This document shows positions 1 through 3,048 of a stretch of 64,000 nt of DNA, one piece after another. Source of the DNA: Sphingomonadaceae bacterium 3R27E2-A (GTDB lineage Bacteria; Pseudomonadota; Alphaproteobacteria; Sphingomonadales; Sphingomonadaceae); contig SCNT01000019.1 in assembly GCA_005503165.1 (NCBI GenBank), positions 1 through 64,000 on the forward strand. The letters run 5' to 3'. Every line of letters starts with the position of its first letter. Positions within the stretch are counted from its first letter, which is position 1. Below the pieces are notes generated by a model, which saw only the letters and a program-made list of their open reading frames with translations, was not told where the DNA came from and ran no database searches. Position numbers and translations under genes: made by a program.

Positions 1-112
1 TTCAACACCCCGATGATCTGCTCTTCCGAAAACCTCAAACGCTTCATCTGTCCGTCCTTCCTTCAAGACCGGACTCTAATCACTGTTGGAGGAAAATCAG
101 GGGGTCACGTCA
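1..112 (-). mobile_element. Terminal fragment of an IS3-family insertion sequence
   Basis: On the minus strand, bases 47 down to 1 read MKRLRFSEEQIIGVL, the characteristic start of an IS3-family OrfA transposase. The element runs off the left edge of the window. The stretch 91-112 (read on the minus strand as TGACGTGACCCCCTGATTTT and onward) looks like the terminal inverted repeat of this group. The exact end, near 106 or 112, cannot be fixed without the other terminus. The element abuts the AT-rich gene pair that follows, consistent with mobility of this region. Confidence 0.75.
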
Positions 113-183
113 CTGTTCATTGTTATCCAAAGGTAATTTTTGGAATTATTCACGCTGCGAAGCCGGGGAGGGGTTTGGTAGAA

Positions 184-1197
184 GTGACTGAAAGCGCAGA
201 TGATTCAGCCGGAGTTTTCACTCAAAGAGCGGCCAATGCCGATATCCGAATAGGAAATTTAAGGAGTGCGCTCGCTGAGAAGCTGTCCCTGCTTCCTCAG
301 TCTGTCCGACATCCCGACCTAACGATCTACGCCACGGGCTCATTGGCCCGCGGCGAAGCCACCGAAAATTCTGATCTTGATGCATTCTTCATGCTGTCTC
401 ATTCAGAAAAAGAAAAGCCAATTGGCCGTATCCGCGATGTAAAAATACTGAACGCCGTTCTCGAGGCCGCGGACGAGAATGGATTTCCCGACTTTTCAAA
501 TGACGGAGAATACCTAAAATTTCTCCATGTCGATGATATACTTAAACACATAGGGCGTCGAGAGGACGATTATATAAACGCATTCACAGCTAGAATGCTT
601 ATGATGCTCGAAAGTTCATGGCTATACAATGAAGATAATTTCAAATTATTCAAAGAAAAAATAATAAATTTTTACTTTGAAGATTTTCATGATCATTCAA
701 AAGATTTTATGCCGATTTTTCTTCTAAATGATATACTTAGATTCTGGAGAACACTTTGCCTAAACTATGAGAGCGGGAGGCAGTGGAGACCTGAAGAGGA
801 CGAACTGAAGAGAGCAAAGGGCCATCTGGATAATCTAAAGTTGAAATTTAGTAGATTAAACATATGCTTCTCTTTTATATGTCATCTAATGAACCAAGGT
901 GTCGGCCTTAACGCCGGCAATGCTATATACACGTCGTCAATGACGCCTTGGCAACGATTAGACGACATAGCCGCAAAGAACCCAGATCTGCAGCCCCAGA
1001 TATCGTCCATGAAACACCTTTACGCTTGGTTCTTGGAAACCACGGGGCACCCAAAGGATGACACGCTAAGATGGATATCCGTAGAAGAGAATCGCGTACA
1101 AGCGTTCTCAAAGGCTGCATCCTATATAGAAAATATGGGTGATCTAACGAAGAATATATCGCAAACTAATGGTTATCTTCGCTTCCTGATTGTTTAG
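184..1197 (+). CDS. Pol-beta superfamily nucleotidyltransferase, island gene
   Basis: This is a minimal nucleotidyltransferase of about 337 residues. The signature GSLARGEATENSDLD (about residues 52-66) gives the Gly-Ser helix start and the first two metal-binding Asp residues; a third acidic residue may lie in FLHVDD. The C-terminal half is helical (NDILRFWRTLCLNYE) and of unknown type. The reading frame is open upstream to 13, but that part runs through the IS end, so I place the start at GTG 184, about 10 bases after GGGGAGGGG; TTG 175 is possible. The gene is strikingly AT-rich with non-host codon use, and it ends 5 bases before a 2H phosphoesterase gene, so the two are co-translated. The substrate is unknown. 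Family membership is secure; function is not. Confidence 0.8.
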   Translation: MTESADDSAGVFTQRAANADIRIGNLRSALAEKLSLLPQSVRHPDLTIYATGSLARGEATENSDLDAFFMLSHSEKEKPIGRIRDVKILNAVLEAADENGFPDFSNDGEYLKFLHVDDILKHIGRREDDYINAFTARMLMMLESSWLYNEDNFKLFKEKIINFYFEDFHDHSKDFMPIFLLNDILRFWRTLCLNYESGRQWRPEEDELKRAKGHLDNLKLKFSRLNICFSFICHLMNQGVGLNAGNAIYTSSMTPWQRLDDIAAKNPDLQPQISSMKHLYAWFLETTGHPKDDTLRWISVEENRVQAFSKAASYIENMGDLTKNISQTNGYLRFLIV

Positions 1198-1202
1198 TAA
1201 TA

Positions 1203-1778
1203 ATGCCGAAACTATTCCTCTTCGCTTATCCCGATGACAAGAGGCTGGAGGACCTACTAAACCTCGCAATTTTCTCTCTCAATCCCGACGCGAAATGGCC
1301 TGCTCACGTCACGATCGCCGGGCCATTTCCTGCGGCACGTTCATTTTCAGTTCCAGACAAATTCTCTGCAACCGTTAGGGTTATTGGAGCAGGAAATTTC
1401 TTTAGATATGGATCATCTACGGTGTTTCTTCATGTTGGCGCGGAGGAATTACAGCCACTATTTAGAAAGCCGGATTTTAAAGGGAATATAGTGCCACATC
1501 TATCGCTATATGATGGGGAAAACAGAGGTCTCGCTGAGACATTTTACAAAAAAATATCTGAAATTAGACCTTTCTTCTTTTTTGTATCCAGTAAGCTTGA
1601 GATAGTTACCTCCGTTTCTGGTCAATTTAAGACTTATCTCAGGGAGAGGGTGAACCTAGATGCCATCCAAATTCCGAATGTCAAAACGGTCGATGATCTA
1701 AGGCGCTTACCCGTGGAAGAACGAATAGATGCCGCAGTTCTTTGTATTCGTAAGGCTCAATACTATTTGAAATTTTAG
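1203..1778 (+). CDS. 2H phosphoesterase (LigT/2'-5' RNA ligase-like)
   Basis: This 191-residue protein has the two H-x-[ST] motifs that define the 2H phosphoesterase superfamily: HVT at residues 35-37 (within AHVTIAGPF) and HLS at 99-101 (within PHLSLYDG). Members cleave or form 2',3'-cyclic or 2'-5' phosphodiester bonds in RNA or nucleotides. The length suits a stand-alone 2H domain with a short extra C-terminus. It is AT-rich like its partner, starts 5 bases after the nucleotidyltransferase stop with no clear Shine-Dalgarno, and is probably translated by coupling. The pairing suggests one enzyme adds a nucleotide or makes a phosphodiester that the other removes or processes; that is inference. 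Confidence 0.8.
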   Translation: MPKLFLFAYPDDKRLEDLLNLAIFSLNPDAKWPAHVTIAGPFPAARSFSVPDKFSATVRVIGAGNFFRYGSSTVFLHVGAEELQPLFRKPDFKGNIVPHLSLYDGENRGLAETFYKKISEIRPFFFFVSSKLEIVTSVSGQFKTYLRERVNLDAIQIPNVKTVDDLRRLPVEERIDAAVLCIRKAQYYLKF

Positions 1779-1928
1779 CTTTTATCGCAATCACGGCGAC
1801 AGAATTTACGGTGACAGGCGCAAACAACCCCTAAATAACCCGAGTCGCCACCCCACCAAATCCTATTTCGCACATCGCGTGCAAAAAACTTCTTTCCTAA
1901 TTTATTTCGCTATGTTCCAAACTGGCAG

Positions 1929-2075
1929 ATGAGCCACATAGCACCGATCCCCTCGCCCGATCCCGCCGCCGACACCGCGCTCGACGCGCATGGTCACGAC
2001 CCCGCCGCCTATCACTGGGTTCCGGTGCTGAAGAAGCGGCGCAAGGACGGCTGGTCGCGCTCGACGCATAAGGTG
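1929..2075 (+). pseudogene. Truncated N-terminus of a sphingomonad KDGWS-type protein
   Basis: The frame from ATG 1929 encodes a proline- and aspartate-rich start followed by HDPAAYHWVPVLKKRRKDGWS. As I recall it, this resembles the N-terminus of a conserved sphingomonad family in which KDGW(S/T) is followed by a helix-turn-helix region. Here the similarity stops after DGWS and the reading frame runs on into sequence that looks non-coding and overlaps the next gene. I read it as a fragment left when the downstream part was lost, possibly when the neighbouring AT-rich island arrived. The 3' limit is arbitrary. Confidence 0.4.
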
Positions 2076-2177
2076 GGCAAGAAGGGGGGTACGTACCGTG
2101 ACCTTTGTGACCTTTCGATCTTTGGCGGGTCGGTTCGCGCCCCGACGCCACCTGGTCTTCGGGCTTGGCGAGGCGCC

Positions 2178-2699
2178 TTAATTCACCGTCACGCCGCCCG
2201 GCGCCGCGCGCATCCCCGCCGCGGCGAACATCACCCCGCCCCTGACCGCTTCGGCCGAGCCTTCGAGCAGCGCCAGCTTCACCAGCTCGCGCGTCACTTC
2301 GCTGTCGTCGTCGACCACCAGCCGCAGCGTCTCCAGCCCCAGCCCGCTCCGCGCCGCGACCACGCCCCGCACCAGCGCCAGCGGCCAGCGCGCGCTGCCG
2401 CCGCGATAGAGCATGCTGCCGTCGTGCCGCACATAGGCATGGCGCCAGCGCCACAGCCGCCGGAACCAGACGAGCCCCAGCAGCGCGAGGGCCATCAGCG
2501 CGGTCATCGCCGCGTCGCCGAAGACGATGCTCGCCGCCACCTCGCCCGCCGTATCGCCGCGCGCCTGCGCGATGACGAGCGCGGCCAGCGCCAGCGCGCA
2601 CAGCAATTGCCCCGCGGCCAGCGGCTTCGGCTTCAGCCGCGCGATCACGACGAACGGCCGCGCGCCCGATCTCGCCCCATGTCTCATCGTCTCGTCCAT
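2178..2699 (-). CDS. Hypothetical inner-membrane protein with two TM segments
   Basis: This is a 173-residue protein starting MDETMRHG at 2699; an upstream in-frame ATG at 2756 would run into the dispersed repeat. Two hydrophobic segments near residues 30-50 and 60-80 are followed by a cytoplasmic-looking domain with VRHDGSMLYRGGSARWP and VVDDDSEVTRELVKLALLEGS. The topology, with paired helices and then a soluble domain beginning with a displayed Tyr-Arg-Gly motif, recalls PH-like membrane proteins, but I do not recognise the family. The coding frame has typical host codon use. It stands alone, with a repeat immediately upstream. Confidence 0.65.
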   Translation of the reverse strand: MDETMRHGARSGARPFVVIARLKPKPLAAGQLLCALALAALVIAQARGDTAGEVAASIVFGDAAMTALMALALLGLVWFRRLWRWRHAYVRHDGSMLYRGGSARWPLALVRGVVAARSGLGLETLRLVVDDDSEVTRELVKLALLEGSAEAVRGGVMFAAAGMRAAPGGVTVN

Positions 2700-2757
2700 C
2701 GCTCCCCAGATAGGCGCCCCCGTCCCGCCGCGCCAGCACCGGCTGGCGGCGGCCACT

Positions 2758-2905
2758 TAATCCTCCCTGTCGCGAAGCGATGGGGAGGGGGACCATGCGA
2801 AGCATGGTGGAGGGGCCGAGGCCTTGCGCGTTGGTCTCAGGCGGCCGCCCCTCCACCACCCTGCGGGCGGTCCCCCTCCCCACGGCTGCGCCGCAGGGAG
2901 GATCA
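2758..2905. repeat. Dispersed palindromic repeat, family A copy 1
   Basis: The outer arms TAATCCTCCCTGTCGC and the matching GCGACAGGGAGGATTA-type sequence enclose inner complementary arms around GGGGAGGGGGACC and GGTCCCCCTCCCC, plus a small hairpin CCATGCGAAGCATGG. Related copies lie at 13541, 20174, 31661, 53966 and 63311. It occupies the upstream side of the minus-strand gene ending at 2178, and nothing in it looks coding. Confidence 0.85.
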
Positions 2906-3048
2906 GGAACCCCACCAACGCTTGAAGCCGCCCGGCGCCATCCCTGGCGGGCGGGCGCCGCGGAACGATCGACCGCCCCGCCGCCGCGCCGAACCGCGCG
3001 CCGCGCGCGCCGATCCCTGCTATGGTGGCGGGCGGAAGGAGACTCGCC

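What the first reader, a model, noticed from the sequence alone, without database searches (positions are those of the whole stretch)
113..1790. AT-rich two-gene module: nucleotidyltransferase + 2H phosphoesterase beside an IS3 element
Seen: two genes 5 bases apart, clearly lower in GC than the rest of the window, next to an IS end and followed by a truncated gene. The first has a pol-beta-type GS...DxD motif; the second has two HxT/HxS motifs of 2H phosphoesterases. Known: nucleotidyltransferases make or attach nucleotides (tRNA CCA addition, cyclic oligonucleotides, AMPylation), and 2H enzymes cleave 2'-5' or 2',3'-cyclic phosphodiesters. Inference: a coupled write/erase or RNA repair/defence module acquired horizontally. 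No effector of CBASS type is visible, so this would not be a standard CBASS. I know of no described system of this exact pair.
Basis: partly seen in the sequence, partly recalled or inferred. Interest (0 to 1): 0.78.

Follow-up and report, generated by a model that had tools for sequence, protein, structure and literature searches.

The report
Mobile nucleotidyltransferase and phosphodiesterase gene pair
A low-GC two-gene cassette pairs an enzyme that attaches nucleotides with one that cuts nucleotide bonds; relatives of the first enzyme usually sit beside such a cutting enzyme of one kind or another, which suggests a little-known family of bacterial antivirus or toxin-control switches.

Summary
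A nucleotidyltransferase (NT, 184-1197) and a 2H phosphoesterase (1203-1778) lie 5 bases apart, at 43% GC in a 67% GC window, behind an ISSpma3 end. The pair is conserved: 14 of 86 NT rows form one clade; 11 have this 2H, one a different 2H, two an upstream 3'-5' exonuclease. The 2H subfamily was found only beside the NT (2 of 385 class genomes, 2 of 80 genus genomes, own included). NT and 2H divergence match (Mantel r 0.96).

Elsewhere the NT family pairs with a SAMHD1-like HD protein (55 of 86 rows, 17 with a histidine phosphatase too) or a CbiR-like TIM barrel (12; PADLOC candidate PDC-M70). Two of 86 show no recognised neighbour.

Best reading (mechanism inferred): a horizontally moving defence or toxin-control pair in which the NT product restrains its partner hydrolase, as in Clover; writer/eraser coupling is a serious rival. 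It is not CBASS, Hailong, MntA/HepT or PDC-M70 proper; kinship with CloB could not be tested. No description of the NT+2H pair turned up in the searches made. New variant of a known kind.

The parts
1..112 (-). end of an ISSpma3 copy (IS3-like); contig end
   Evidence: 98.2% identity to ISSpma3; same bases at the ends of 7 other contigs; strand from my reading of the start of the transposase frame
165..173 (+). possible ribosome-binding site GGGGAGGGG before GTG 184
   Evidence: read from the sequence; inference
184..1197 (+). pol-beta-superfamily nucleotidyltransferase, 337 aa, GlnE/DrrA-like fold, distant relative of PDC-M70A
   Evidence: Pfam PF01909 5.3e-7; PADLOC PDC-M70A 1.1e-23; model pLDDT 91.6; fold matches; family alignment
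337..381 (+). catalytic motif G52 S53 ... D64-x-D66
   Evidence: invariant in 77 aligned rows
1203..1778 (+). 2H phosphoesterase, 191 aa, partner of the nucleotidyltransferase
   Evidence: PF13563 7.5e-5, below cut-off; model pLDDT 83.6; fold matches to a phage PDE, Arabidopsis CPDase, YjcG, Acb1
1305..1313 (+). first 2H motif H35-V-T37
1497..1505 (+). second 2H motif H99-L-S101
1801..1801 (.). approximate right edge of the inserted module; homology to the nearest genus relative starts here
1929..2057 (+). remnant (43 codons) of the conserved HTH-type gene that flanks the spot (HTH label read by eye)
   Evidence: tblastn 100% over 43 aa; full gene 233 aa in L146

Best explanation
It is a two-gene cassette that moves between bacteria as a unit. 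Gene 1 is a GlnE/DrrA-fold nucleotidyltransferase that makes a nucleotide product (a short oligonucleotide, or a nucleotidylated partner). Gene 2 is a 2H phosphodiesterase that would harm the cell, or a phage, by cutting a nucleotide-containing target. In the healthy cell the NT product keeps the 2H enzyme quiet; infection disturbs the nucleotide supply or the product, the 2H enzyme is released, and phage growth stops. The 2H gene is then one interchangeable effector of an NT family whose other effectors are an HD dNTPase, a CbiR-like TIM barrel and a DEDD exonuclease. Shown here: the pair, its conservation, its signs of mobility, the intact active-site residues, and the change of partner between clades. 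Inferred: that the product restrains rather than feeds the 2H enzyme, what the product is, and that the role is defence.
For: Partner survey: of 86 NT rows, 55 have an HD gene directly upstream (17 of them also a downstream histidine phosphatase), 12 a TIM barrel, 11 this 2H, 1 a 2H-SAK, 1 another 2H with an upstream histidine phosphatase, 1 a histidine phosphatase alone, 5 none of these on the same strand; of those 5, two have an overlapping upstream DEDD exonuclease and one a TIM-barrel gene on the other strand 25 bases away. Partner type follows the NT tree: 12 changes against 43.7 in shuffles. A dNTPase with an NT is the make-up of Clover, where CloB makes p3diT that restrains CloA (PMC12265719). 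The HD partners keep the HD pair and the H..E dyad at the spacing reported for CloA in 52 of 52 aligned, and a profile of 8 of them matches SAMHD1-type dNTPases. The exonuclease partner matches PADLOC's model 'Effector / Exonuclease' at 7.3e-42. Mobility: GC below surroundings in all 14 rows of the 2H clade; an HD-NT-phosphatase copy on a viral contig; variable spot in the genus.
Against: No 2H enzyme is known to me as the toxic arm of such a system; 2H enzymes are better known as erasers of nucleotide signals or as RNA end-healing enzymes (partly recalled; passages). The closest folds of the NT, GlnE and DrrA, modify proteins (function recalled). All swapped partners are phosphohydrolases, which fits an eraser at least as well as an effector. 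No defence island is shown around the 2H loci. The NT rows are 306-419 aa, longer than CloB can be (under about 280 aa, if the cloned 2.2-kb operons hold just a CloA of at least 452 aa and CloB), so the NT may not be a CloB.
Confidence: 0.42

Rival explanations
1. Writer/eraser: the NT attaches a nucleotide to a protein, RNA or small molecule (or makes a signal), and the 2H enzyme removes or degrades exactly that bond. The NT may be the toxic or regulatory arm and the phosphohydrolase its antidote.
For: Every partner seen can in principle hydrolyse a phosphodiester or phosphate of a nucleotide product: 2H, DEDD exonuclease, CbiR-like TIM barrel (3.4e-8, below cut-off, one protein), CobC-like histidine phosphatase (7.9e-20, below cut-off, one protein), HD. 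GlnD joins an NT and an HD domain as writer and eraser in one protein (recalled). Fold closest to the nucleotidylating enzymes GlnE and DrrA. 2H fold close to nucleotide phosphodiesterases incl. Acb1.
Against: The commonest partner is of the SAMHD1/dNTPase type with the dNTPase dyad, for which restraint, not erasure, is the experimental precedent (PMC12265719). HD and histidine phosphatase occur together in 17 rows, so one eraser slot does not explain all.
Confidence: 0.32
2. RNA 3'-end repair: the 2H enzyme opens 2',3'-cyclic phosphates left by ribotoxins and the NT adds nucleotides back to the 3' end.
For: Passages in PMC7824862 and PMC9503650 describe, for phages, 2H enzymes that clean such ends and template-independent NTs (RlaP, a Pol-beta family) that restore bases, together with RNA ligases. 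Fold matches of the 2H protein to CPDase, LigT and Usb1. An exonuclease partner with a Rv2179c-like exoribonuclease match (27.3 bits, cut-off 27) could trim ends. The E. coli CCA enzyme joins NT and HD (recalled).
Against: No RNA ligase lies among the partner genes found; the NT fold is closest to GlnE and DrrA, with Cid1-type polymerases far lower; no RNA family in window 1-3000; a dNTPase-type HD partner does not fit.
Confidence: 0.12
3. Small-molecule modification, such as an aminoglycoside-type adenylyltransferase with an accessory phosphoesterase.
For: AadA, AAD(9) and ANT among the fold matches (Z 5.3 to 7.8); one relative (L012) lies among glycosyltransferase, aminotransferase and MFS genes.
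Against: Better matches to GlnE and DrrA; the kinds of partner and the spread over several phyla (titles) do not fit resistance. The flanks of the 2H loci were listed but not annotated for this.
Confidence: 0.06

Closest known systems
PADLOC candidate PDC-M70 (PDC-M70A + PDC-M70B)
   Same: The NT matches PDC-M70A (1.1e-23); two-gene unit, NT first, hydrolase second in 11 of the 12 TIM-barrel rows.
   Different: The partner is a 2H phosphoesterase, not the TIM-barrel PDC-M70B; the NT matches only 190 of 355 profile positions.
Clover (CloA dNTPase + CloB nucleotidyltransferase; PMC12265719)
   Same: Pol-beta NT paired with a nucleotide hydrolase; 55 of 86 NT rows have an HD dNTPase-like gene directly upstream. 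The DxD of the L010 NT is at residues 60/62 (my count), near D61/D63 named for CloB in one legend; other passages give D71/D73.
   Different: In the window the partner is a 2H enzyme. The HD partners are mostly 310-440 aa and SAMHD1-like, shorter than CloA; the NT is longer than CloB can be. Homology to CloB itself not tested.
Hailong (HalA + HalB)
   Same: Pol-beta NT with one partner (recalled for Hailong); HalB is a weak match (0.14 in NCBIfam; 0.003 with the family profile).
   Different: Score 11.8 bits against a cut-off of 190; partner is not a membrane protein by its predicted fold.
GlnE / DrrA nucleotidyltransferases
   Same: Whole-length fold match (Z 15.0 DrrA, 14.6 GlnE), GS...DxD motif.
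   Different: 8-12% identity; substrates of the NT unknown.
2H phosphoesterases (phage BCSR5 PDE, Arabidopsis CPDase, YjcG, LigT, Acb1, Usb1)
   Same: Fold (Z up to 10.8) and two HxT/S motifs.
   Different: 10-20% identity; a C-terminal helix beyond the matched part; beside the NT wherever found in the sample.

Membership tests
Pol-beta nucleotidyltransferase superfamily | GS...DxD catalytic motif in an NT domain | tested here: met
   PF01909 30.4 bits over cut-off 21; invariant in 77 rows
2H phosphoesterase superfamily | two H-x-[TS] motifs in the 2H fold | tested here: met
   both histidines 12 of 12; Z 10.8 to YjcG and CPDase; Pfam 23.3 bits is below the cut-off of 27 for the window protein, 27.4 for L021
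PDC-M70 | NT homologous to PDC-M70A | tested here: met
   82.1 bits, 1.1e-23, but only profile positions 33-222 of 355
PDC-M70 | adjacent PDC-M70B TIM barrel | tested here: not met
   partner has no PADLOC match at E up to 10; no TIM-barrel hit in the 2.2 kb after the window NT
Clover | adjacent CloA-type HD dNTPase | tested here: not met
   no HD hit in the 2.2 kb after the window NT, nor within 3 kb on either side in the intact relative L021; the window's own upstream side is a contig end
Clover | NT is a CloB homologue | not testable with these tools
   no CloB sequence obtained; the two E. coli regions tried did not hold Clover
Clover | p3diT synthesis and binding | not testable with these tools
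   needs biochemistry
Hailong | HalB equivalog | tested here: not met
   11.8 bits against cut-off 190
CBASS | match to a CBASS cyclase or effector model | tested here: not met
   only PDC-M70A and PDC-S09 matched the NT and nothing the 2H at E up to 10 in PADLOC; that PADLOC holds CD-NTase models is recalled
Type VII toxin-antitoxin MntA/HepT | MntA equivalog with HEPN partner | tested here: not met
   17 bits against cut-off 60; partner is 2H
GlnD/GlnE | equivalog score | tested here: not met
   best GlnD model 18.2 bits against a cut-off of 799; no GlnE model listed for the window NT

The most novel reading that the evidence does not exclude
One nucleotidyltransferase family is a general module that has been coupled, in separate clades, to unrelated phosphohydrolases (HD dNTPase, 2H phosphodiesterase, CbiR-like TIM barrel, DEDD exonuclease), each held in check by, or acting on, the same kind of nucleotide product. 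The 2H phosphodiesterase would then be a new effector class of inhibitory nucleotide signalling, and PDC-M70, the NT+2H pair and the HD+NT+phosphatase systems would be one system class beside Clover.
Probability: 0.35. Interest if true: 0.8.

Novelty: new variant of a known kind. Interest (0 to 1): 0.62.

Why it matters
Inhibitory nucleotide signals (Clover, Hailong, Panoptes) are a new idea in bacterial immunity. A single NT family with four or five exchangeable hydrolase partners would show that this logic is broad, would give the PADLOC candidate PDC-M70 a mechanism to test, and would make the nature of the shared NT product directly testable by comparing clades.

Tried and rejected
First relative search with the window NT alone in genome contigs found none; the five-row alignment then found 163, of which the tool kept 80, confirmed against and ranked by likeness to the window NT, so partner shares are not population frequencies.

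The phylum search with A2 at E 1e-4 gave 121 of 299 genomes, but only the window and G660 are full-length among the matches listed (the list is cut); the other listed ones cover only the NT core, many in frames of GlnD length. Not used for prevalence. Sampled prevalence of the NT, own genome included: family 2 of 397, class 7 of 385, one of these a weak partial match in a long frame, L020, genus 2 of 80.

Phages: no match to the NT. Viral contigs: one NT, no 2H. Plasmids: the same 4 NT relatives with each of three queries, no 2H. E. coli genomes: 1 of 5426 holds the L010 pair at DNA level.

CloB could not be obtained: the E. coli H5 and H6 regions gave housekeeping genes. Paper searches: PDC-M70, NT with 2H, NT with xylose-isomerase-like TIM barrel, PADLOC candidates, Clover and related, 2H with phage BCSR5. 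Of these I saw the listings; I opened PMC12265719 (sections named in the report) and looked up passages on 2H and nucleotidyltransferases in PMC9503650, PMC7824862 and PMC5512222, which speak of 2H and NTs in RNA repair, or of 2H as a counter to nucleotide signals, not of this pair. The other listed papers were not opened, and only open-licence papers are held. The legend of Extended Data Fig. 1a of PMC12265719 says that CloB homologues are coloured by adjacent effector, so its authors may know further partners; figures and supplements were not seen. Nicastro et al. 2023, cited there for the dNTPase-NTase pair, could not be found under the DOI that I recalled.

RNA families in 1-3000: none at gathering score. 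Cobamide metabolism as a common theme (CbiR and CobC as nearest NCBIfam names of two partners) was considered and dropped: the scores are below the cut-offs; cobamide genes nearby were not searched for.

Rows dropped before the tree count (93 loci with an NT hit, 8 dropped, window row added): the window copies L001 and L009, L017 (taken as the same genome as L045 from equal NT length and contig length), L020 (GlnD-like), L050 and L055 (fragments), L077 and L094 (over-long frames). L050 has the 2H, L077 and L094 TIM-barrel hits. Of the 5 rows without a same-strand partner, L016 has only about 1.4 kb on each side and L095 only 397 bases downstream.

The defence-context scan used 79 flanking proteins picked by eye from 122 predicted frames of 13 loci; left out were the 2H partners, frames I judged spurious and a few others. 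It includes the two exonucleases and the L026 fusion. 28 PADLOC families were matched at 1e-10, such as mad3 (5 members), mad8 (3), HEC-07, PDC-M34, SoFic, CorA (1 each); I did not trace them to loci, so the scan neither shows nor excludes defence islands.

Full report
1. The observation. The window begins at a contig end: bases 1-112 are the end of an ISSpma3 copy (98.2% identity) that also lies at the ends of 7 other contigs. Then come two genes on the + strand, NT (GTG 184 to 1197) and 2H (1203-1778), 5 bases apart. Their GC is 0.43 each; the whole window has 0.674 and the lowest of 302 overlapping 1.6-kb windows in the rest has 0.626. This is not chance. The open frame upstream of 184 runs into the IS; I take it as no part of the gene. 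After the pair come the first 43 codons of an HTH-type gene (1929-2057), whose remainder is missing here but present in a genus relative.

2. The proteins. The NT has PF01909 (30.4 bits, cut-off 21) and matches the PADLOC candidate PDC-M70A at 1.1e-23 over 190 of 355 profile positions. Its AlphaFold model has pLDDT 91.6. The best solved folds are DrrA (Z 15.0, rmsd 5.0, 270 aligned) and GlnE (Z 14.6, rmsd 5.1, 268 aligned), over both the NT domain and the helical domain; the tool warns that mostly helical models often reach such Z, but DrrA also has a weak sequence match (0.0029). G52, S53, R56, D64, D66, G124, D128, R137, E143, D183, R189 and R224 are among the invariant residues of 77 rows. 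The 2H protein is below the Pfam cut-off (23.3 of 27 bits), but its model (pLDDT 83.6) matches a phage phosphodiesterase (Foldseek 8.0e-6), YjcG and Arabidopsis CPDase (Z 10.8 each) and Acb1 (Z 9.0), and both motif histidines are invariant in 12 of 12 aligned. Both enzymes are therefore predicted to be active.

3. The pair is a unit. The 80 relatives kept of 163 found in genome contigs, 4 plasmid relatives and hits from whole-genome searches were surveyed with models of each partner. On a tree of 86 NT rows, 14 form one group with SH-aLRT 100: 11 with this 2H (the window included), one with a 2H-SAK (L026), two (L023, L024) with an upstream overlapping DEDD exonuclease. Gaps from NT to 2H run from -55 to +15 bases in 12 loci. 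Pairwise identities of NT and 2H correlate at r 0.96, reached by 0 of 5000 permutations (11 pairs); this is what co-inheritance gives. Reverse test: the 2H alignment found matches in 2 of 385 genomes of the class, the window's and G523, which was not in the alignment, and in 2 of 80 of the genus, the window's and G1040; each lies beside the NT. G1040 agrees in coordinates with Sphingopyxis sp. JAI108 (L021), which was in the alignment. The samples are small in positives, so 'only beside the NT' rests on three genomes here.

4. It moves. In 12 loci of the 2H clade the module has lower GC than its flanks (0.358-0.540 against 0.483-0.715), and so do the two genes of G523 (0.50 and 0.52, locus 0.646) and the window. 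In L021 the pair lies between nrdB with a short DUF gene and the HTH-type gene, the same spot as in the window. In two other genus members this spot holds other cargo: an HTH gene with an ImmA/IrrE-type peptidase (L146) and a 363-aa protein with a C-terminal hydrophobic segment (L147); these labels are my reading of the sequences. L021 shows no further gene between the DUF gene and the NT, so the IS in the window probably hides none, but the assembly gap leaves this open; the other side of the gap is probably contig C8. An HD-NT-phosphatase relative lies on a viral contig beside a Zot-like gene and a DNA methylase (L133; both labels read by eye).

5. The NT family has other partners. Of 86 rows: HD 38, HD with histidine phosphatase 17, TIM barrel 12, this 2H 11, 2H-SAK 1, upstream histidine phosphatase with another 2H 1, histidine phosphatase alone 1, none of these on the same strand 5. 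Of the 5, two have the exonuclease, L084 has a TIM-barrel gene on the other strand, and L016 and L095, both with a short flank, show nothing. Partner type needs 12 changes on the tree against 43.7 in shuffles. All 55 HD genes lie upstream on the same strand. In the 52 aligned (those of 300-445 aa among the 54 first found) the residues H77, H109, D110, H118, E121 and D187 are invariant; HD and H..E have the spacing reported for CloA. A profile of 8 of them matches the SAMHD1-like 2o6i (4.2e-21) far better than the antiphage dGTPase 9p8w (3.9e-5). Three of three TIM barrels tested are PDC-M70B (2.2e-105 to 1e-91); one tested is weakly CbiR-like (3.4e-8). One phosphatase tested is weakly CobC-like. 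The exonucleases match PADLOC's 'Effector, Exonuclease' (7.3e-42; 2 members). In L026 a divergent neighbour fuses a 2H domain to a type II DNA methyltransferase.

6. Mechanism. A dNTPase with an NT is the make-up of Clover, of which I read the abstract with introduction, the sections on p3diT and on mechanism, the CloB bioinformatics section, Extended Data legends and figure legends (PMC12265719) and passages found by search. There CloB makes p3diT, which restrains the dGTPase CloA; without active CloB the effector is toxic. The native gene order was not read. The simplest extension is that the NT of this family also makes a product that restrains its partner, and that the 2H enzyme is one of several exchangeable effectors. 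Against this, all partners are phosphohydrolases and could be erasers of what the NT writes, as the HD domain of GlnD is (recalled). The data do not separate the two; I put 0.42 on restraint and 0.32 on writer/eraser. That the pair is a conserved, mobile, functionally coupled module I hold at about 0.9.

7. Defence? For: signs of mobility, PADLOC candidate status of the NT family, dNTPase-like and 'effector' exonuclease partners, a viral-contig copy, variable spot. Open: 79 flanking proteins of 13 loci gave matches to 28 PADLOC families at 1e-10, which I did not trace to loci; by eye many flanks are ordinary genes.

8. Novelty. The NT+2H pair was not found in the searches and passages listed under Tried and rejected, in an open-licence library only. 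The NT family is in PADLOC through PDC-M70. Hence a new variant of a known kind, not categorically new.

Noticed in passing
L133 4759-7347: HD + NT + histidine phosphatase module on an IMG/VR contig beside a Zot-like gene and a DNA methylase (labels by eye); looks like cargo of a filamentous phage.
   Followed up: partly
L026 3484-5622 (-) and 6912-7367 (+): A 2H domain fused to an Eco57I-type DNA methyltransferase lies divergent to the NT, which is also followed by a 2H-SAK gene.
   Followed up: partly
L023 192-875, L024 5301-5978: DEDD 3'-5' exonuclease overlapping the NT start, in place of the 2H partner in the 2H clade.
   Followed up: partly
L146 4522-5518, L147 2472-3563: The spot beside nrdB in this genus holds different cargo in the genomes looked at, perhaps a small integration hotspot.
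   Followed up: partly
L012 1-12028: NT + histidine phosphatase without HD inside a cluster of glycosyltransferase, DegT aminotransferase, oxidoreductase and MFS genes on a Rhizobium plasmid.
   Followed up: no
L010 1-1706: A 4.5-kb E. coli plasmid that carries an HD + NT pair (the HD gene seems to run across the record start); 1 of 5426 complete E. coli genomes at DNA level.
   Followed up: partly
L079 4802-7514: Ruegeria: upstream histidine phosphatase with an N-terminal extension, NT, and a different 2H gene, apparently an independent NT-2H pairing.
   Followed up: no
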